Both the position numbers and the translations under genes were made by a program. 64,000 bases of DNA from Candidatus Obscuribacterales bacterium (GTDB lineage Bacteria > Cyanobacteriota > Vampirovibrionia > Obscuribacterales > Obscuribacteraceae): positions 620,001 to 684,000 of the forward strand of contig JAIETZ010000002.1 in the NCBI GenBank assembly GCA_019744775.1, given 5' to 3'. Below, in pieces: positions 47,383-62,758 of the stretch (position 1 is the stretch's first letter; every line of letters starts with the position of its first letter). Below the pieces are notes generated by a model. It was not told the DNA's origin. It made no database searches and was given only the letters and a program-made list of their open reading frames with translations.

Positions 47383-48591
47383 TTAATAGACTCGCAGCAT
47401 GGTTTGAAAAATTCGCCTCATAACTACTTCGATGCCAGGGGCAAACGTGACCGGATACAAAGGAAGTAATAACGGCAAACGAAGAGAAAGGACACGAACC
47501 GCCTGCAACATTCCCACTTTTTCGCTTCGAATTGAAACGGTAAGTCCGTTGTTTGAATCAGCACTTCCACTCTTTAGTTGAGTCAAATGAAAAACATCGA
47601 GGCGACGGACTGTTTCTGCTAATCGGCTAGCCACTGCAGATTTATCGTCGTAAGCAACCCGTACCTTTTCTCCAAATATATTGCCGACTAAAGATCTTAC
47701 GAGATCAAACATGCGTCCAAAATCCTTAGCCTCAATAAATGGAAGATATCCGGCCATCATCACGGGCTGAAATAGCGGTATAACCATTGCCCAATCTAAT
47801 CCGGCATGAAAGAGAGCGCCTACAAAGAGAAGCGGATAGCGCAACTCCTTAACCCAAATTAGAAACGGGAATGACAACTCAAAAGCTAGTGTCCCCAAGC
47901 TCAGCAGACTACACAACCACAATTGATCCAATAGCGGAGAAGTAAAACGTTGAAATTGTGTTAGATGCGCTGCGTAGTAAACAGCAGTACCATCCATCCA
48001 AGAAGCGCCATGAAGCTTGCATGATCCAGCGCTCCAATAGACAAGTGCCATTTGCACCTGCATCAAGCGCAGAGCAAAGACACTACCATCCCTGGCCGGA
48101 CCAAAATCAGGGTTCTTCTTCCGCCAGACGCTCGCAATTCTCTTGAACGATAAGGCTTCACCACAACGAGAGAATACAAGAAAGAGAGTCATCACAATCA
48201 TGATTTTGATACCGGTGTTTAATACGAAGTGATTGCGACTGTCAAAGGCCAGCATAATCAAATAAACAATTAGAGCGTTCAATCTTGAGAAAACGCCGAG
48301 AATCAAACAAATTCCGGATAAAGCCAATAAGTTGAGCGCTGCACTAATCCAATAATCATCCTTTGGCAAAAGGGACAACACATCAAATTGAGGACTGCCC
48401 ATCCAATGCGCTACAGTGCTCGATTGCACTATTCGGTGCAATCCCAAAAATTGTGTCGCTTCCGGGGAGATCCACCAGCAAAAGATGAGTACCAAAACAC
48501 CAATAGCTATCCGAAACACGGCTAATGGCATTGGAGACCCTGGGGCAAACCAAAATTCATTCCAAGCAAGCCATAATTCGCGAAGAGTCAT
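47383..48591 (-). CDS. HTTM membrane protein with degenerate DCC (DUF393-like) C-terminus
   Basis: 402 residues, last gene of a coupled six-gene run. Residues about 1-300 are a polytopic HTTM domain, related to vitamin K-dependent gamma-carboxylase: AWNEFWFAPGSPMPLAVFRI at the N-terminus, QVQMALVYWSAGSCKLHG, then ASWMDGTAVYYAAH. From residue 310, VRVAYDDKSAVASRLAETVRRLD, VSIRSEKVGMLQA and LRLPLLLPLYP follow the layout of DCC thiol-disulfide proteins, but the usual DxxC is missing (DDKSA instead). So a fusion with a probably inactive DCC unit. Its start overlaps the partner gene's stop by 4 bp. Confidence 0.8.
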   Translation of the reverse strand: MTLRELWLAWNEFWFAPGSPMPLAVFRIAIGVLVLIFCWWISPEATQFLGLHRIVQSSTVAHWMGSPQFDVLSLLPKDDYWISAALNLLALSGICLILGVFSRLNALIVYLIMLAFDSRNHFVLNTGIKIMIVMTLFLVFSRCGEALSFKRIASVWRKKNPDFGPARDGSVFALRLMQVQMALVYWSAGSCKLHGASWMDGTAVYYAAHLTQFQRFTSPLLDQLWLCSLLSLGTLAFELSFPFLIWVKELRYPLLFVGALFHAGLDWAMVIPLFQPVMMAGYLPFIEAKDFGRMFDLVRSLVGNIFGEKVRVAYDDKSAVASRLAETVRRLDVFHLTQLKSGSADSNNGLTVSIRSEKVGMLQAVRVLSLRLPLLLPLYPVTFAPGIEVVMRRIFQTMLRVY

Positions 48592-49160
48592 TTGAGATCC
48601 TCTTCTTGTACGGCATATTTCAAGACTGAATCAGATTTGGCAACACCGGCCCTTTTATCGATTTTTCCAGGCACTGAAATATATTGATAGTCTCTAAATA
48701 TCTCCACCTGCACTGGCTGATTTTTGGGATTTCGATGAATATAGGCAATGTATTTGGCGGCATCGGGTAGCAAAACCGCATTCTGCTGATCCCAAACCAA
48801 GTAGTATTCCCATTCAACCCAAGGCAGTTTGAGCTGCTTCATCACGTCGCTATTTTTATAGTCAACCAAGCTTGGAAAATGCCAGGTAGTCGTCGTACCA
48901 TCACCGAAAGTTACGATTGCCCGAAATTGTTGATTGTACTGAGCGGGATCAGGTGCAAACACACCAAAGTTATTGCATAGTCCAACACAACTAAACAAGG
49001 GTCTGAATAAACTAATCCAAGATAAAGTCAAAGGCGAATAGGGCGAACCGAAAGTAACTCCCAAGATAATAAACATAGCTGCAACACAGCTGAGGGCAAT
49101 GCGCCTTGCTAAATCAAATGAGTAATTAGTGTTTTCTTTCATACACACACATTGCATCAT
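48588..49160 (-). CDS. HTTM partner protein, copy 1
   Basis: 190 residues. One N-terminal membrane helix (about 20-40), then an exported domain with FGVFAPDPAQYN, TFGDGTTTTWHFPSLVDYK, WEYYLVWD, LLPDAAKYIAYI and NQPVQVEIFRDY. The same order of blocks occurs in the two other partner proteins at 53673 and 61234. It always lies directly upstream of an HTTM gene with a 4-bp overlap. A later ATG at 49142 lacks a ribosome site. Overlaps the upstream lipoprotein gene by 35 bp. No named family known to me. Confidence 0.65.
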   Translation of the reverse strand: MMQCVCMKENTNYSFDLARRIALSCVAAMFIILGVTFGSPYSPLTLSWISLFRPLFSCVGLCNNFGVFAPDPAQYNQQFRAIVTFGDGTTTTWHFPSLVDYKNSDVMKQLKLPWVEWEYYLVWDQQNAVLLPDAAKYIAYIHRNPKNQPVQVEIFRDYQYISVPGKIDKRAGVAKSDSVLKYAVQEEDLK

Positions 49161-50760
49161 AAATGCCTGGCCATTGTGGAATGACTACGACATTTTTCAG
49201 TTTCCAATCTTTTGCCAATAACAAAAAGAAGTCTTTGTTTCCGTTGCAACCACCAGGTCCTTCACCGATATAAATAAATGTCTTTCCTTTGTATTTGGAT
49301 AGAGCTTGAAATGCAAAAGGGTCTTCGCCGGGTGGCCAGCAAATAAATAATGTTCTTTCCGGATGCTTTTCTACAACGCTTTCGTCGCCTGCCAAAACTT
49401 CCGACCAGCTTTTCTTGGCTCTAAAATGCCATGCATTATTTTTAGCGGGAACAGGGACAACGTCATACGCAATAATATCCACTCCCATCTTCTTCAGCAG
49501 CGAAGCCCAATACCCTGTTCCTGCGCCAGCTTCTAAAATGGGTTGGTATTTTTTCAATTCAAGTAACGCTTCAGAATTTGGAATTGCCCAAGCATACTCC
49601 TGGGGCATGTGGACACGCTTCTCGTAAAAGTCCTGCAAATGTCTAATGCCGGAAAACTCTGCCAAAAACGGATTGTCAACCTTTTGTAGGCTTGGATTTT
49701 GTTGGCGAAAATGTTCTTCTGCTTCCATAAATCCAGCAGGAGCCTTATGACAAGCATGCCAGCTGCGATAGACTTCCGATATGAAATCATCGCGCTTTAC
49801 CAAAAGATCTTTATCAACTGCCGATACTTGATTGAAAATCTCGATGATTCTGCCGAACAATAATTCAGCCTCTGCATATTTGCCTGCATGACAGTAATAG
49901 TAAGCAAGTTTCTCCAAAGTATTTACGACGTCAGGTCCAATTTCCGCAAGCATTGTTGCCGGTGGGCCGGTGCGTTTGTTAACTGGTCGCAGAAACACTC
50001 CCAGTTTTCCTTGTGGCATCGGCTCTCTTTTCTGTTCGTAAGTCAAGTCGTAGAGTTGTCCCCAATGCCGTTCGGCTTCAAGAGCGAATTTAAGACCACT
50101 CTTGTAACCCTTGCGCTGATTACATAAGTCAGCTTGATCAGATTCCACTTGAGCCAACTGATCAAGAAGAGGATATTTGAAATCGACAAATTGCGGAGTA
50201 CCAATAACTTCATTGGCGAATGCTGCGGACTTACCATACATAAGAGCCGCCGGCTCAAGCTTGTCCAACTTCACAAACGAGTCAGCCAGCTTGCGAGTGC
50301 TGGACACCATACTGATCATCCGTCCTGAGACTTCCGATATATCGGCAGAACGCTTGTAAGCCTCCATGGCTTCCTTGTATTTGCCTTGCTGGTAAAACGT
50401 ATCTCCCAACTCCGACAAATTCCAGGCGAGTCCCAGAAATTCTCCTTTGTGATACTTGTCTTCGATAGCAATTAACTTCTCAAAGTTATGCTGCGCTTCT
50501 TCGTATCGACCAAGATTGCTTTGCAATTGGGCTAAGTTATGCAAAGTCAATGTGTATCTGTAATCTTTCTCTCCATATTTTTCAGAACACGCAAGAGCAT
50601 CACTCCACTTTTTGCTGGCAGCATCGAGTTCTCCTTTTTGCTCAAGTGTCTCGGCTTCGGAGAAGGCGGTGCCCCAGCAATGCGTGGTTGTACTGCAAGA
50701 CATCAGCGGCAGAGCAATAATTGCACAAACCAAAAGCGTTGAAAACAATCGATGTCGCAT
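49126..50760 (-). CDS. Lipoprotein with TPRs and a SAM-methyltransferase-like domain
   Basis: 544 residues. Lipoprotein signal peptide with lipobox LMSC (C22). Residues about 35-340 are tetratricopeptide-like repeats (YTLTLHNLAQLQSNLGRYEEAQHNFEKL in part). Residues 405-540 resemble a small-molecule methyltransferase: ILEAGAGTGYWASLL (motif I), IIAYDVVPVP, TLFICWPPGEDP, FIYIGEGPGGCNG and IPQWPGIYD. SAM is not expected outside the cytoplasm, so an exported version is puzzling. Ten bp separate it from the longer paralogue upstream. Confidence 0.75.
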   Translation of the reverse strand: MRHRLFSTLLVCAIIALPLMSCSTTTHCWGTAFSEAETLEQKGELDAASKKWSDALACSEKYGEKDYRYTLTLHNLAQLQSNLGRYEEAQHNFEKLIAIEDKYHKGEFLGLAWNLSELGDTFYQQGKYKEAMEAYKRSADISEVSGRMISMVSSTRKLADSFVKLDKLEPAALMYGKSAAFANEVIGTPQFVDFKYPLLDQLAQVESDQADLCNQRKGYKSGLKFALEAERHWGQLYDLTYEQKREPMPQGKLGVFLRPVNKRTGPPATMLAEIGPDVVNTLEKLAYYYCHAGKYAEAELLFGRIIEIFNQVSAVDKDLLVKRDDFISEVYRSWHACHKAPAGFMEAEEHFRQQNPSLQKVDNPFLAEFSGIRHLQDFYEKRVHMPQEYAWAIPNSEALLELKKYQPILEAGAGTGYWASLLKKMGVDIIAYDVVPVPAKNNAWHFRAKKSWSEVLAGDESVVEKHPERTLFICWPPGEDPFAFQALSKYKGKTFIYIGEGPGGCNGNKDFFLLLAKDWKLKNVVVIPQWPGIYDAMCVYERKH

Positions 50761-50770
50761 TAACTAACTC

Positions 50771-52744
50771 CTAGGGTCTCGCCGATGAGCGCGGAACGGT
50801 TTCATCGTACCAATGACTAAAATGTTCGATATAACCTTCTTCGTTGGCCGAATTTTTGGATAAATCAATGTATCTCAATACAGCGTCGCGACCACTTTGC
50901 TGATAGGCAGTAAGTAGTTCCTCTGTCGCCTTATCTATCGGCACACCAGCTGCTTTTAACTCTTGCGCCGCCATCAACTCATGTATTACTGCATCCGCTT
51001 CCTGCTCGAAGCCCTGCAAAATGAATTCTTTACGTCCTGTTTTTCCTGGAATAGGGTTATTGGTTGGATTCAGTACGGCATGAGCATATTCGTGAGATAA
51101 AGCCAGAAGTTTGTGACTATCGCTGAATTTTGTTGATACGTAAATCGTCTTGGTTTTTTGATCAAAATAAGCACCGTTACGTTTGACAAATTCAATCTTC
51201 ACTCCACGGCGCAACAGAGTACAAATATCATCAAATACAACCGGAGACTTAGCAGCTATTAGCGCCAGTTTTTCGCCTAGTGGTTTGGACAAATTGCAGG
51301 CGGTGTCGCTTTTCACTGGCACATTGCGTTCATAAACGCTGAGCTGATCATAGACACCGGGCCATTGCGGAATGTCCAGACGCTTAACTAGATGCCATTC
51401 TTTTTTCAACAAGTCGTGAAATTCTTGCGTGCCGGTGCAGCCGCCTTCACCTTCTCCGACGTAAATAAATCGCTTTCCTCTAAATAGTCGCAGCGTGTTG
51501 TATCCACAGCGATTGGTATTCGGAGGCCAACTTAGAAATAATGTCCTATCACTAAAGCGCCTGACGGCTGTTTCATCACCGGGCTGAACATCAAAAAATT
51601 GTTTTCCGGCGGTCATATGCCACTGATTCCCCTTAGATGGAACAGGAGCAACATCAAAAGCAACGATGTCGCCACCGGCATTTTTCACCAGCCCCGCCCA
51701 ATAACCTGTGCCCGCACCAATTTCAACTAGCGGCTGAGCAGACAGCAGAACCTCTATAGCTGCCTCGTCAGGAACAGACCAGGCATAGTTTTGACAAAGA
51801 TTCTGACGATTATCAAAGCAATCCTGTGGGGTTTTCAGAAGCGTGAATTGTTTGAGATACGGATTTTCTTTCGCGTCGGTAGTACTTAAGCTATAGTGCT
51901 TTTTACTCTCGCGCTGACATGACGTACGCAATGTCCACACATGCGAAATGTCCTTTTCGTTCAGCCAGTCATAAAGGAACATTGCATCAAGTGATTTTCC
52001 CGACTGGCAAAGATGCTTCGCAACGGATTCTATGACGGTCTGTTTTTTCGCAACATTGCTCAGATGCATTTGTTTGCGCAACTCCGACCAAATTGAATCA
52101 GCCTGTTTGGCAATGTCTTCGGACTTTGATAATTGCGCCCATTCATCTAGCATCATGGCGTAAGTAACATCAAGGAATGATCGCTTACGTTCAAGCGACG
52201 GCATAGCAATAGACTGCTCGTAATTTTTCTTGGCTTGTTCGAACTTAAGCTTGGCAGTGCTTTCGTCGTTGTCTTTCCAATAGCAAACCGCCAACTTATT
52301 CAACACGTGAATCGTATCTGGAGTACGGGCGTACTCGTACAACTTGTCGAGTGCTTCTTTGTAAGTTGGAATGGCCAATGTCCACTGACCTGCTGCAGCG
52401 TAGAGATCTCCTAACTCTGTCAGATTCCACGCCATGCCGTGGTAAGTGCCGGCTGGTTCGTTCTTCTTTATGTCAATGAATTTGATGTAGTAAGGAATAG
52501 CTTTGTCCGGTTGACCGGCTTCGCGATACACGCGCGCAAGCGCGTAACAGGCGTGCTGAGTCGTAGACCAATCTTTCTTGGCTTCACCTGACATAGCAAT
52601 GTCTGCCAACAACTTCTCCGCGCGAGGTAAGTCGCCGGAAGCTTCCGCCTTTTGCACCTCGGAAAGCGGATCAGCCGGTGGCGCTGGGGTGCAGGAAGTC
52701 AGCAATGCAAGACCAAAGGTGGGTATGACGAACTTGAGTTTCAC
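50771..52744 (-). CDS. Lipoprotein with TPRs, methyltransferase-like domain and C-terminal zincin
   Basis: 657 residues. Lipobox LTSC (C18); TPR-like region about 25-240; methyltransferase-like domain 335-475 with PLVEIGAGTGYWAGLV, IVAFDVAPVPSKGN, LFLSWPPN, YVGEGEGGCTG and IPQWPGVYD, clearly homologous to its neighbour. A further 180 residues contain LLALSHEYAHAVLNP (H551-E-x-x-H555) and QGFEQEADAVIHEL, the HExxH...E layout of gluzincin-type peptidases. Overlaps the upstream HTTM stop by 4 bp. The domain combination is not one I know. Confidence 0.75.
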   Translation of the reverse strand: MKLKFVIPTFGLALLTSCTPAPPADPLSEVQKAEASGDLPRAEKLLADIAMSGEAKKDWSTTQHACYALARVYREAGQPDKAIPYYIKFIDIKKNEPAGTYHGMAWNLTELGDLYAAAGQWTLAIPTYKEALDKLYEYARTPDTIHVLNKLAVCYWKDNDESTAKLKFEQAKKNYEQSIAMPSLERKRSFLDVTYAMMLDEWAQLSKSEDIAKQADSIWSELRKQMHLSNVAKKQTVIESVAKHLCQSGKSLDAMFLYDWLNEKDISHVWTLRTSCQRESKKHYSLSTTDAKENPYLKQFTLLKTPQDCFDNRQNLCQNYAWSVPDEAAIEVLLSAQPLVEIGAGTGYWAGLVKNAGGDIVAFDVAPVPSKGNQWHMTAGKQFFDVQPGDETAVRRFSDRTLFLSWPPNTNRCGYNTLRLFRGKRFIYVGEGEGGCTGTQEFHDLLKKEWHLVKRLDIPQWPGVYDQLSVYERNVPVKSDTACNLSKPLGEKLALIAAKSPVVFDDICTLLRRGVKIEFVKRNGAYFDQKTKTIYVSTKFSDSHKLLALSHEYAHAVLNPTNNPIPGKTGRKEFILQGFEQEADAVIHELMAAQELKAAGVPIDKATEELLTAYQQSGRDAVLRYIDLSKNSANEEGYIEHFSHWYDETVPRSSARP

Positions 52745-53676
52745 AGTACCTCCGCTTTAGAGACGAACTTCGGCTTTACCGCACGCCACAGTTTTTCATA
52801 CGTTGACGGTTCGATGAAGCACATGAGGCTCGCAATCATAATTGTTTGGAATTGCGGAATTATGAGCGTGAAGTCGAAGAAGAGGTGCATGATGATGCCA
52901 CCTATTACAATCGGCAAACGCAAATCCTTGATCCAAATCAAAATACACAGCGCGAATTCACCGACCAACGTAAGCCAACTAAGAATACGCGCAGTCCATA
53001 AATGATCGTACAAATACGGCAGAGCATATTTGTTTTCTTCGATAATATGCGTGATGTAGTAAACAGCAGTTCCATCTATCCACGTCTGCCCACAAATTTT
53101 TGCGGAGTAAGCCGCCCAATAAACTAACGCTATTTGCACCTGCAACAGGCGCAGCGCCCAGGGATTTACTGCGTCAGGCGGCGCCCATAAAGGCTCCTTC
53201 TTCAACCAGCGTTTGATAAGCAAGTCTACCGACAGTGCCTGTCCGCATTGACTGAAGATAAGTAGAAACGACTCGACACGCATTACATTATCCGCGCCTG
53301 TAAAGATGAGTGAGTTGCGGGCATCAATTGAGATCAAGCCCAAGTAAACAATTACGGCACTGAGTCTTGTGCAAAATCCTATAGTCAAACAAAACGCCGC
53401 GACTACAAACACCGCAAAGAGAAATTCGGCAGATGCTGCAGTTGCAGGCAGCCAATCGAAGGCATTGAGGCGCGCGCCACCGTTCCAGGCAATATTTGCT
53501 GCCTGTGAAATAATTGCCTTGGGTCCGAAATACCATTGAAAATCACCGTGCAAGTACCAACTCAATTGCAAAACAATCAATCCAAACAAGATGCGAAAGA
53601 CAGCAGCAGGAATTGGCGACTCCGGCTTAAACCAAAAGTCATTCCAAGCTTTGAAAAACTGTTGCAGTGTAATCAC
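52741..53676 (-). CDS. HTTM membrane protein, copy 2
   Basis: 311 residues, polytopic. AWNDFWFKPESPIPAAVFRI at the N-terminus, LQVQIALVYWAAYSAKICG, QTWIDGTAVYYITH, and LTLVGEFALCILIWIKDLRLPI. Shares about the same conserved residues as the other two HTTM proteins (AWNxFWF, SPxPxAV, QxALVY, WxDGTAVYY). No DCC tail. Overlaps both neighbours by 4 bp. Whether it is an active carboxylase is not shown. Confidence 0.8.
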   Translation of the reverse strand: MITLQQFFKAWNDFWFKPESPIPAAVFRILFGLIVLQLSWYLHGDFQWYFGPKAIISQAANIAWNGGARLNAFDWLPATAASAEFLFAVFVVAAFCLTIGFCTRLSAVIVYLGLISIDARNSLIFTGADNVMRVESFLLIFSQCGQALSVDLLIKRWLKKEPLWAPPDAVNPWALRLLQVQIALVYWAAYSAKICGQTWIDGTAVYYITHIIEENKYALPYLYDHLWTARILSWLTLVGEFALCILIWIKDLRLPIVIGGIIMHLFFDFTLIIPQFQTIMIASLMCFIEPSTYEKLWRAVKPKFVSKAEVL

Positions 53677-54257
53677 AGCTCTCCCGGTTTGATGTGGTAC
53701 GTAAAAAACATGTCTTTTTGCAGAGAGTCGGTTTTAACTTCACCTGTATCTTCTCTACCTGGCAGCAAGGTTCTTTCCGTGACGTTATACAAAACGACTC
53801 TCACAGGCGGGTTTTTCGGATCTGCATTATTCTTGCGCGCAGCAAATAACGCCGCATCAGGCAAAATTTCCGCATTGCCAACCGGATCAAACAGATAGTA
53901 TTTCCATTGATAGTAGCGATGTTTGCTCTGGTGCAAATAGAAGTCTTTTTTGTAGTCTTGGAGTCGAGGAAATTCCCAAGACTTTTCCGTACCGTCGGCA
54001 TACAAAATATCGGCACCGATATGAATGGTATAAACCTTCGGCGGATCAGGAGCATACATCCAAAAGAATTGATAGAGGCCCATATATAGGAAAGGAGGCT
54101 TAATCGCCGCTACCAAAACATCATGGCAAACTGAAGGCGGCGAACACATAATGAAGGCGGCTACTGTCCATACAACTATAAACAGATTGATAAACGCGTA
54201 GCTTAAACTGCGCCGGATATTTTGCACTTGATTCTGTTGGGTCGCTTGAGCCTGCAT
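53673..54257 (-). CDS. HTTM partner protein, copy 2
   Basis: 194 residues. A membrane helix near 20-40, then FFWMYAPDPPKVYTI, ADILYADGTEKSWEFPRLQDYK, YYQWKYYLFD, ILPDAALFAAR and NPPVRVVLYN. Of the three partners it has the longest stretch between the YADGT block and the PDAA block. First gene of the six-gene run; the promoter must lie in 54258-54373, shared with the divergent cytochrome operon. Confidence 0.65.
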   Translation of the reverse strand: MQAQATQQNQVQNIRRSLSYAFINLFIVVWTVAAFIMCSPPSVCHDVLVAAIKPPFLYMGLYQFFWMYAPDPPKVYTIHIGADILYADGTEKSWEFPRLQDYKKDFYLHQSKHRYYQWKYYLFDPVGNAEILPDAALFAARKNNADPKNPPVRVVLYNVTERTLLPGREDTGEVKTDSLQKDMFFTYHIKPGEL

Positions 54258-60329: not shown

Positions 60330-60359
60330 AAAGAAGGCTCTCAATCGAGAGCCTTCTTT
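60330..60359. terminator. Bidirectional terminator
   Basis: Perfect 13-bp arms AAAGAAGGCTCTC and complement with AATC loop, followed by T-runs both ways. The HTTM stop codon at 60341 lies within it. Confidence 0.92.
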
Positions 60360-61237
60360 TTTAGGAATCGATCCATGTCTTCGGGATAAATGAAGACCAC
60401 CAATGAAGCGATCATTAGCCACTCGAAAATTGGGATGTTCATGGTTACATCAATACCAATGTGCAAAAGAATCGCTGCAGCTAAGACGAAATAGCGGAAC
60501 TTTCGGAACCAGACCAAAGTAAACATCGAGGCTTCGGTGGCGAGCGCTCCCCATGTGAGTATCTTCGATAAAAACAAATTATCGGCGATGAAAGAAACCG
60601 GCATGCGAGCAAATTCATCTACGTGCAACGCATAATAGACCGCCGTCCCATCGAGCCACGTGTCGCCGGCCAGCTTACTGGTAAATGCTATGAAATACAC
60701 TAAAGCCACCTGATACTGCAACAACTTTTGCAGCCACTGACTCTTCATTGGTATTTCAGCCTGTCCATTTCTTTTCGCGTTCCAACGATCAATAGAGAGC
60801 GCCTCTCCAGCATTGGAAAATACAAGGTAGTAAGCTCCCAGCCGGAGCAAAGTGTCTCCACTATTAAGAATTAGTACGTTGCGATGATGAATTCCGATCA
60901 GAGCTATCAATACAAGGAAAGCACTCAGTCTCGTATGCCATCCTAACGTTAGGAGAATGCCGAACACAAACGCACTACTAAACAGTGTTCCTGTATTCCG
61001 TGCCGATTCAAAAAAGTAATTCAAGAAATCGAGACAAGGTCCCTGCACGTACAATCTAGATGTCTCAAAACTCAGTACACCATGTGGTCCATAAAACTCA
61101 TCTGTATACGGCCACAAAAGTACAAGCGTACAAAGTAATATCACACCATAAAAAATACGGTAAACAGCCATAGGTGTCGGCGATTGTTCGGCAAACCAAA
61201 AGTTATTCCAAGCTGATGTGATTCGACTAGCGATCAT
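60341..61237 (-). CDS. HTTM membrane protein, copy 3
   Basis: 298 residues, polytopic. ITSAWNNFWFAEQSPTPMAV, then LLQYQVALVYFIAFTSKLAG and DTWLDGTAVYYALHVDEF. The same conserved positions as the other two HTTM proteins. No DCC tail. Its start overlaps the partner stop by 4 bp. Confidence 0.8.
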   Translation of the reverse strand: MIASRITSAWNNFWFAEQSPTPMAVYRIFYGVILLCTLVLLWPYTDEFYGPHGVLSFETSRLYVQGPCLDFLNYFFESARNTGTLFSSAFVFGILLTLGWHTRLSAFLVLIALIGIHHRNVLILNSGDTLLRLGAYYLVFSNAGEALSIDRWNAKRNGQAEIPMKSQWLQKLLQYQVALVYFIAFTSKLAGDTWLDGTAVYYALHVDEFARMPVSFIADNLFLSKILTWGALATEASMFTLVWFRKFRYFVLAAAILLHIGIDVTMNIPIFEWLMIASLVVFIYPEDMDRFLKKKALD

Positions 61238-61761
61238 TCAAGATCCTTTGGATTGACTTTTGCAGTGTAGATAACTGACGTATGCTCTTCACGCTTCTGA
61301 GCGTTGCCCGGTGCGGGTGTGTCGATTTCGTGCTTGATCAAGGTTATGAATACCGGCGGATTACTCTGACTATTGTGCAATCTGGCAATATAGCGAATGG
61401 CATCCGGCCAAGCTACCGCTTGTTCTGCATCACCAATATTATCGTTGGCCCATTTCCTATAGCGCTCTGCCGGTATTTTTTCCCACCATGTACGTTTTTC
61501 CACTCGAGGAAATTCCCATTCCTTGCTAGTACCATCGGCAAACTCAACATCTGCCGACAGATACGTGCTGCACTTGGGAGGATTCGGCGCAAATACCGTC
61601 CAAGATTGATCAAGACCGCAAAATCTTATGTACGGTAACAATGGCGATACAAGCGCATCTCTAGCAAAAGATGACGGTAGACAATAAGCAGTTAATCCAA
61701 TGATATGAGCAAGTATGAAAGTAGAAAGAGCCGGTTTGCGAATGCGCTGCCATGCATTCAT
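61234..61761 (-). CDS. HTTM partner protein, copy 3
   Basis: 175 residues. One N-terminal membrane helix, then WTVFAPNPPKCSTYL, ADVEFADGTSKEWEFPRVEKR, AWPDAIRYIARL and NPPVFITLI. The block order matches the two other partners. Its ATG overlaps the TadE-like gene's stop by 4 bp, a tie between the HTTM pair and the pilin-like genes. Confidence 0.65.
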   Translation of the reverse strand: MNAWQRIRKPALSTFILAHIIGLTAYCLPSSFARDALVSPLLPYIRFCGLDQSWTVFAPNPPKCSTYLSADVEFADGTSKEWEFPRVEKRTWWEKIPAERYRKWANDNIGDAEQAVAWPDAIRYIARLHNSQSNPPVFITLIKHEIDTPAPGNAQKREEHTSVIYTAKVNPKDLE

Positions 61762-62171
61762 TTCATCGGAATCCCCACAATAGGTTCAGTCTGATGTTGG
61801 CTTAGCGTATAGTCTTGTGGCAAACCAGGAATCGGTACAGGAAATTTCCCTTTCAAATCCAGAGTAACCGTGACACTTTCACCTTTAGGATCAGTCGTGT
61901 TCCAATCAAGCTTTTTCTTTGTTAGCGAAATCAAAAATGGTGTCGGCTTGAAGTCTCTAACCAGTTCGTCCACAGAACTGTTTGCAGCATTAGCGGTTGC
62001 TTGGTTGGCTGCGGAGCGAGCAACGTCTTTAACATAACTGTCGAGCGCTTGTTTAGAGATAGCAAAGACAGCCAGGTCATAAAACAGCAGCAGTATCGGC
62101 ACAAGAATTAGAAAACCAAATGCGAGTTCGGTAATTCCTTGTCCATGTTTTCTTCTAGTTCGATTATTCAC
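61758..62171 (-). CDS. TadE-like pseudopilin
   Basis: 137 residues. GQGITELAFGFLILVPILLLFYDLAVFAI is the TadE type: a Glu just inside a hydrophobic helix after Gly (G-x-x-x-E). The GTG start at 62171 follows CAGGTG. No other pilus gene such as an ATPase or secretin is in the window. It is the second gene of a four-gene coupled run. Confidence 0.75.
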   Translation of the reverse strand: MNNRTRRKHGQGITELAFGFLILVPILLLFYDLAVFAISKQALDSYVKDVARSAANQATANAANSSVDELVRDFKPTPFLISLTKKKLDWNTTDPKGESVTVTLDLKGKFPVPIPGLPQDYTLSQHQTEPIVGIPMK

Positions 62172-62181
62172 AAAGCACCTG

Positions 62182-62652
62182 TCATTGTGTTGCGTAAAGC
62201 GGGTTTTCCATCAACCGTTCGCCAGTAAAGGTGTATTCAATCGGCGCTCCCAAACCAGGGACATTAGCAAGACCGGGAATCGTCATTACTGAATTCGATT
62301 TGACGGTTGTGGTGACTCGAACAGTGTAATCACCATTTACCCGTGACTTGTATTCAACTTTAGCAGTCGGCGGGCTTTGACCCTTGTTGACGAATTGCCC
62401 TGGTCCCGTGCTCATCCAAGCAGTAGTGATGGCGAGCATCTCAGCATCAACTGCGCTCTTCTTAACCATCGCTGCTTGCCGCAATTGAGCGCTTTGCAGA
62501 AGGTATCCCGTGCTATAGGTGAAGCCCATAAACAAAAGGTCTAAACCAGGAAATAGAAGAAGAAGAAATACAATGCCAATCGCAACTGAAAACTCGACGG
62601 TTGCTGCACCCTTTGATCTAACTGTGCTTTTCTGCCGCTTGCAACCGCTCAT
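62182..62652 (-). CDS. TadE-like pseudopilin, 156 aa
   Basis: KGAATVEFSVAIGIVFLLLLFPGLDLLFMGF carries the TadE motif (Glu at the border of the helix). The rest is strand-rich exported sequence. GGGGAG nine bases before the ATG at 62652. First gene of the four-gene run ending with the third HTTM gene. Confidence 0.75.
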   Translation of the reverse strand: MSGCKRQKSTVRSKGAATVEFSVAIGIVFLLLLFPGLDLLFMGFTYSTGYLLQSAQLRQAAMVKKSAVDAEMLAITTAWMSTGPGQFVNKGQSPPTAKVEYKSRVNGDYTVRVTTTVKSNSVMTIPGLANVPGLGAPIEYTFTGERLMENPLYATQ

Positions 62653-62758
62653 TTCTACGAACTCCCCTAAACGATCTAAACCCATTATTGCTTATTTCAA
62701 TGACCGTGCCTAGGTTCTCGGCATGTACCGAAATCCGCAACAGGCTAGACTGTTTAAC

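What the first reader, a model, noticed from the sequence alone, without database searches (positions are those of the whole stretch)
47383..54257. Six-gene coupled operon built from a duplicated HTTM/partner/lipoprotein module
Order on the minus strand: partner 2, HTTM 2, TPR-methyltransferase-zincin lipoprotein, TPR-methyltransferase lipoprotein, partner 1, HTTM 1. Overlaps are 4 bp at 53673-53676, 52741-52744 and 48588-48591, and 35 bp at 49126-49160; one junction has a 10-bp gap. Both partners, both HTTM proteins and both lipoproteins are homologous to each other, so the operon is two copies of one module. HTTM proteins are related to the vitamin K-dependent carboxylase. A membrane-embedded enzyme with an exported partner and a periplasmic lipoprotein suggests envelope modification of proteins or lipids. 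I know of no described system with this composition.
Basis: partly seen in the sequence, partly recalled or inferred. Interest (0 to 1): 0.88.

Follow-up and report, generated by a model that had tools for sequence, protein, structure and literature searches.

The report
Carboxylase-like pairs with exported methyltransferases
This six-gene operon of an Obscuribacterales bacterium (a non-photosynthetic relative of cyanobacteria) joins two copies of a widespread membrane-enzyme pair, related to the vitamin K-dependent carboxylase, to two lipoproteins with methyltransferase-like domains that appear to sit outside the cytoplasm; the pair is of a known kind, but the combination was found only in two related genera and its chemistry is untested.

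Summary
The six genes, their strand, overlaps and homologies are as described. The partner/HTTM pair is a stable unit: 65 of 70 partner genes in Obscuribacteraceae lie directly upstream of an HTTM gene. It is not unknown: it matches DUF5819/HTTM pairs of Streptomyces and Virgibacillus, and 48 of 50 HTTM proteins hit the SdpB model weakly. The HTTM proteins align with human GGCX (E 7.5e-20) and keep its catalytic Lys218 (48/50) but not His160. The new part is the lipoproteins: TPR repeats fused to a class I methyltransferase domain whose relatives are mostly cytosolic or viral, here with lipobox signal peptides. The exported form is one clade and 11 of 12 members sit in HTTM clusters, in four species of two genera. 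It is not a clean duplicated module: pairs and lipoproteins multiplied separately, and the downstream pair differs between sister species. Elsewhere HTTM pairs lie near TadE-like pseudopilin genes (26 of 60 within 6 kb, 0.41 expected). Most likely an envelope-protein modification cluster; new variant of a known kind.

The parts
53673..54257 (-). partner 2: N-terminal membrane helix plus exported domain with a GLYQFFWMYAPDPP motif; DUF5819-like
   Evidence: partner family is homologous to Streptomyces DUF5819 by hhalign, prob 96%, E 5e-9
52741..53676 (-). HTTM 2, membrane enzyme of the GGCX/SdpB superfamily, Lys193 = GGCX Lys218
50771..52744 (-). TPR-methyltransferase-zincin lipoprotein (lipobox LTSC; GAGTGYW; HEYAH)
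49126..50760 (-). TPR-methyltransferase lipoprotein (lipobox LMSC); model pLDDT 88
48588..49160 (-). partner 1, DUF5819-like
47383..48591 (-). HTTM 1, with a C-terminal extension of about 90 residues
60341..61237 (-). HTTM 3, third pair of the window, outside the operon clade
61234..61761 (-). partner 3, overlaps the TadE-like gene upstream by 4 bp
61758..62171 (-). TadE-like pseudopilin-type gene coupled to the third pair; candidate substrate class
62182..62685 (-). second TadE-like gene

Best explanation
The cluster is an envelope-protein maturation locus. Each HTTM protein is a membrane-embedded, probably quinol-driven enzyme of the GGCX/SdpB superfamily, and its single-pass DUF5819-like partner supplies the exported domain that presents a substrate. 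Judging from the other pairs of this family, the substrates are surface proteins such as TadE/TadG-like pseudopilins and collagen-like proteins. In this lineage the locus has added exported lipoproteins whose TPR superhelix would bind the substrate or the pair, whose methyltransferase-like domain would act on or bind it, and one of which carries a metallopeptidase domain that would trim it. Shown: gene order, coupling, homologies, catalytic Lys, signal peptides, conserved methyltransferase motifs, purifying selection, Tad association of HTTM pairs. Inferred: quinol chemistry, substrate identity, roles of the lipoproteins.
For: Partner directly upstream of HTTM in 65/70 cases. HTTM profile to GGCX PDB 9l20 E 7.5e-20, the Lys aligned with Lys218 kept in 48/50; Lys218 is the base that deprotonates vitamin K hydroquinone in GGCX (PMC12589487). 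DUF5819 homology and same gene order in Streptomyces and Virgibacillus. 26 of 60 HTTM genes in 26 held-out genomes lie within 6 kb of a TadE-like gene, 0.41 expected; 4-bp coupling of pair 3 to a TadE-like gene. Exported TPR-MTases: one clade, 11/12 in HTTM clusters, 8/12 with lipobox and the other 4 with or next to a hydrophobic N-terminus. Same locus, between cytochrome c genes and a glutamate-synthase-like gene, in G000 and G002.
Against: The GGCX glutamate-binding His160 is Gly or Ala here, so Glu carboxylation is unlikely as such. No substrate gene lies inside the six-gene operon. S-adenosylmethionine is not known to be available outside the cytoplasm (general knowledge), so the methyltransferase domain may be a binding domain; one copy (G023) has lost the motif. 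The TadE association is for HTTM pairs in general, not for this operon clade in particular.
Confidence: 0.45

Rival explanations
1. A secreted-toxin maturation array like SdpAB: the pairs process or modify small secreted antimicrobial proteins, and the variable number of pairs reflects rivalry between strains.
For: 48/50 HTTM proteins hit the SdpB model; B. subtilis sdpABC and its paralog yitPOM make secreted toxins and the authors suggest that processing depends on the A and B proteins (PMC6818787); the downstream pair differs between sister species while the rest is 90-96% identical, and arrays grow to 4-5 pairs.
Against: No SdpC match in the genome, no SdpA match to PF17418, SdpB scores far below the cut-off (33-40 against 178 bits), no small secreted precursor ORF seen in the operon.
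Confidence: 0.2
2. The lipoproteins are a co-transcribed but separate system (TPR scaffold with a dead or binding-only methyltransferase fold) and do not work with the HTTM pairs.
For: G010 has such a lipoprotein and no HTTM match of this type in a 98% complete genome; most HTTM pairs have no such neighbour; one copy has lost the motif.
Against: 11 of 12 exported copies are in HTTM clusters with conserved order between two genera; overlapping genes at both junctions with the pairs.
Confidence: 0.2
3. The HTTM/partner pair modifies lipids or quinones of the envelope rather than proteins.
For: HTTM is a membrane-embedded quinone-binding fold in GGCX; the locus lies next to cytochrome c genes.
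Against: Relatives with a known function act on proteins or peptides; Tad-like and collagen-like protein genes are the recurrent neighbours.
Confidence: 0.1

Closest known systems
DUF5819/HTTM gene pairs of Streptomyces and Virgibacillus plasmids
   Same: N-terminal helix plus QNWxxFAPDP motif, directly upstream of HTTM, some with the same 4-bp overlap
   Different: No TPR-methyltransferase lipoproteins nearby; often followed by DCC1/DUF393 proteins; function not known
SdpA/SdpB of Bacillus subtilis (and YitP/YitO)
   Same: HTTM protein with a small partner; weak but consistent SdpB profile match
   Different: Scores far below the cut-off, SdpA model not matched, no SdpC
Vitamin K-dependent gamma-glutamyl carboxylase (GGCX)
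   Same: Same membrane domain, catalytic Lys kept
   Different: No propeptide-binding domain in the same chain; His160 not kept; half the length
phrog_19090 methyltransferases (HGTV-1 gp67, PhiCh1 ORF83, Streptomyces, Chloroflexota)
   Same: Same domain with GAGTGYW and WPP motifs
   Different: Those are mostly single-domain proteins without signal peptide; here fused to TPR and exported
DUF6782 putative metallopeptidase
   Same: HExxH domain, E 6.5e-12
   Different: Usually a stand-alone protein of about 180 aa in this family; here the C-terminus of a lipoprotein

Membership tests
HTTM (PF05090) | Pfam gathering score | tested here: met
   49.7 and 50.9 bits against 27.7
Vitamin K-dependent carboxylase | catalytic Lys218 | tested here: met
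   Lys in 48 of 50 at the aligned position
Vitamin K-dependent carboxylase | His160 that holds the glutamate | tested here: not met
   Gly 37, Ala 5, no His among the commonest residues of 50
Vitamin K-dependent carboxylase | gamma-carboxylation activity | not testable with these tools
   needs an enzyme assay
SdpB family (TIGR04033) | NCBIfam cut-off 178.4 bits | tested here: not met
   33.0 and 39.6 bits
SdpABC toxin system | SdpA (PF17418 / TIGR04034) | tested here: not met
   no match of PF17418 in the genome; only an off-locus E 0.046 for TIGR04034
SdpABC toxin system | SdpC toxin precursor (TIGR04032) | tested here: not met
   no match in the genome; B. subtilis control found
DUF5819 (PF19136) | Pfam gathering score 27.1 bits | tested here: not met
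   partner 1 scores 13.6 bits; 12 of 52 partners match at best E 6e-4; homology holds by profile comparison, E 5e-9
DUF5819/HTTM pair | partner directly upstream of HTTM, same strand | tested here: met
   65 of 70; same order in Streptomyces and Virgibacillus
class I SAM methyltransferase | motif I and Rossmann-like alternation of strands and helices | tested here: met
   GAGTGYW kept; alternating strands and helices from residue 396 with pLDDT near 90
class I SAM methyltransferase | methyl transfer with SAM | not testable with these tools
   needs binding or activity assay
bacterial lipoprotein | signal peptide with lipobox | tested here: met
   LTSC and LMSC after hydrophobic stretches

The most novel reading that the evidence does not exclude
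A SAM-type methyltransferase that works outside the cytoplasm, tethered as a lipoprotein and coupled to a GGCX-like membrane enzyme pair, so that secreted surface proteins receive two successive modifications; this would require a source of SAM, or another cofactor, in the envelope.
Probability: 0.2. Interest if true: 0.85.

Novelty: new variant of a known kind. Interest (0 to 1): 0.56.

Why it matters
Bacterial HTTM proteins are common, and for most of them no substrate is known. This work ties them, in one family, to TadE/TadG-like and collagen-like surface proteins, which gives testable substrates. The exported methyltransferase domain raises a plain biochemical question: what does a SAM-binding fold do where SAM is not expected?

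Tried and rejected
Phage-defence reading: PADLOC found only a generic TPR match. Fold search of the partner model gave no credible match (best Foldseek E 0.92, VIA Z 4.1, pLDDT 71), so its fold is left open. Fold search with the full TPR-MTase model was filled by TPR structures and says little about the methyltransferase part. The zincin has no convincing PDB relative by sequence. One Hymenobacter gene before an HTTM gene is not a detectable partner homolog. Papers on the HTTM-partner pair, on DUF5819, or on extracytoplasmic SAM methyltransferases were not found in the held library; that is absence in this library only. The promoter scan gave no more hits than shuffles.

Full report
Observation. 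Pfam gives HTTM for both membrane proteins, TPR for both lipoproteins, DUF6782 metallopeptidase at the C-terminus of the longer one, and nothing significant for the partners. Pairwise identities inside the operon are 31-37%. The window is at 620001-684000 of contig 2 of a 4.1-Mb genome; contigs of its relatives are titled Candidatus Obscuribacterales. A third HTTM/partner pair is in the same window at 60341-61761, with a 4-bp overlap inside the pair and another with the TadE-like gene before it.

The pair. In 40 genomes around this one, 70 partner genes were found and 65 lie directly upstream of an HTTM gene on the same strand, many with the 4-bp overlap. In the family search 46 of 50 genomes have HTTM proteins of this type. 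The partner is a divergent relative of DUF5819: hhalign probability 96%, E 5e-9 against three Streptomyces proteins and E 4e-8 against one of Virgibacillus, all of which are encoded directly before an HTTM-type gene. So the pair is a known, though functionally undescribed, arrangement. The matches to SdpB are consistent (48 of 50) but far below the cut-off, and SdpA and SdpC were not found; it is SdpAB-like, not a member.

The HTTM enzyme. The profile finds human GGCX in the PDB at E 7.5e-20. The lysine aligned with Lys218, the base that starts the reaction in GGCX (PMC12589487), is kept in 48 of 50, while the glutamate-holding His160 is Gly or Ala in most. A quinol-driven reaction is plausible; Glu carboxylation in its known form is not supported.

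The lipoproteins. Both have a hydrophobic stretch ending in a lipobox (LTSC, LMSC). Their methyltransferase domain belongs to phrog_19090; relatives in haloviruses, Streptomyces and other Actinomycetota, Chloroflexota and others are mostly single-domain proteins without a signal sequence. On the tree the 12 rows of the exported type form one clade (bootstrap 96, SH-aLRT 94) next to non-exported TPR-methyltransferases of the same family. Eight have a lipobox; three have another hydrophobic N-terminus, and one (G002 x2) is a methyltransferase fragment whose TPR part, a separate frame beside it, has one; the three non-exported TPR copies have neither. Eleven of the 12 are in HTTM clusters of G000, G001, G002 and G023; the twelfth, in G010, is in a genome without such HTTM. 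The motifs GAGTGYW, (Y/F)D and WPP are kept in all the operon copies examined but one, G023 P3. The predicted structure of the shorter lipoprotein is confident (pLDDT 88): TPR superhelix, then a Rossmann-like domain.

History of the locus. The order partner, HTTM, TPR-MTase-zincin, TPR-MTase, partner, HTTM is complete in G000 and G023; in G001 and G002 it is seen on broken contigs that agree with it. HTTM proteins of these clusters form one clade (SH-aLRT 98), with separate upstream and downstream groups shared by both genera. Arrays differ in size, with up to four or five pairs and several lipoproteins. Between G000 and G001 the DNA is 88-90% identical through both lipoprotein genes and then alignment stops: the downstream pair is a different one, 45-50% identical in protein. 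So pairs and lipoproteins multiplied and changed as separate units; 'two copies of one module' is too simple. Purifying selection on four of the six genes is clear (dN/dS 0.03-0.09); the downstream pair could not be tested this way.

Substrate clue. Neighbours of HTTM pairs across the family are TadE/TadG-like genes, some with collagen-like GPX tails. With a TadE-like profile, 26 of 60 HTTM genes in 26 genomes not used to build it lie within 6 kb of a hit, against 0.41 expected from hit density. The hit list was cut, so the true count may be higher; the expectation assumes an even spread of genes. G005 and G040 have GPX arrays within a few kb of HTTM genes.

Verdict. A real, conserved locus; an extended version of a known pair. 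The exported methyltransferase lipoproteins are the new part, limited to two genera so far. The mechanism, modification of envelope proteins, is an inference from homology and neighbourhood.

Noticed in passing
window 60341-62685: Third HTTM/partner pair, coupled by a 4-bp overlap to a TadE-like gene; the pair is absent between the same Tad-like genes in G002.
   Followed up: partly
L061 8660-10669, L083 12926-14770: TadE-like proteins with long collagen-like GPGGP(A/S/K) tails next to HTTM pairs.
   Followed up: partly
window 491, 5720, 6768, 7733, 15746, 16967, 19609, 28219, 39130, 43924, 46084: Eleven exact copies, in either orientation, of the near-palindrome GGGCGCATTGCATGCGCCC; a similar one lies between the cytochrome gene and partner 2 in G001.
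   Followed up: no
L146 (G048:C73), also G013:C1, G048:C69, G064:C493, G060:C51: The same methyltransferase domain inside very long open frames; 6,665 codons without a stop were read in L146. For G013 the tool gave 18,420 codons, but my translation of 20 kb showed stops, so that figure is unsure.
   Followed up: partly
G000:C2:58302-58635: Remnant of a further HTTM gene in two short pieces in different frames.
   Followed up: no
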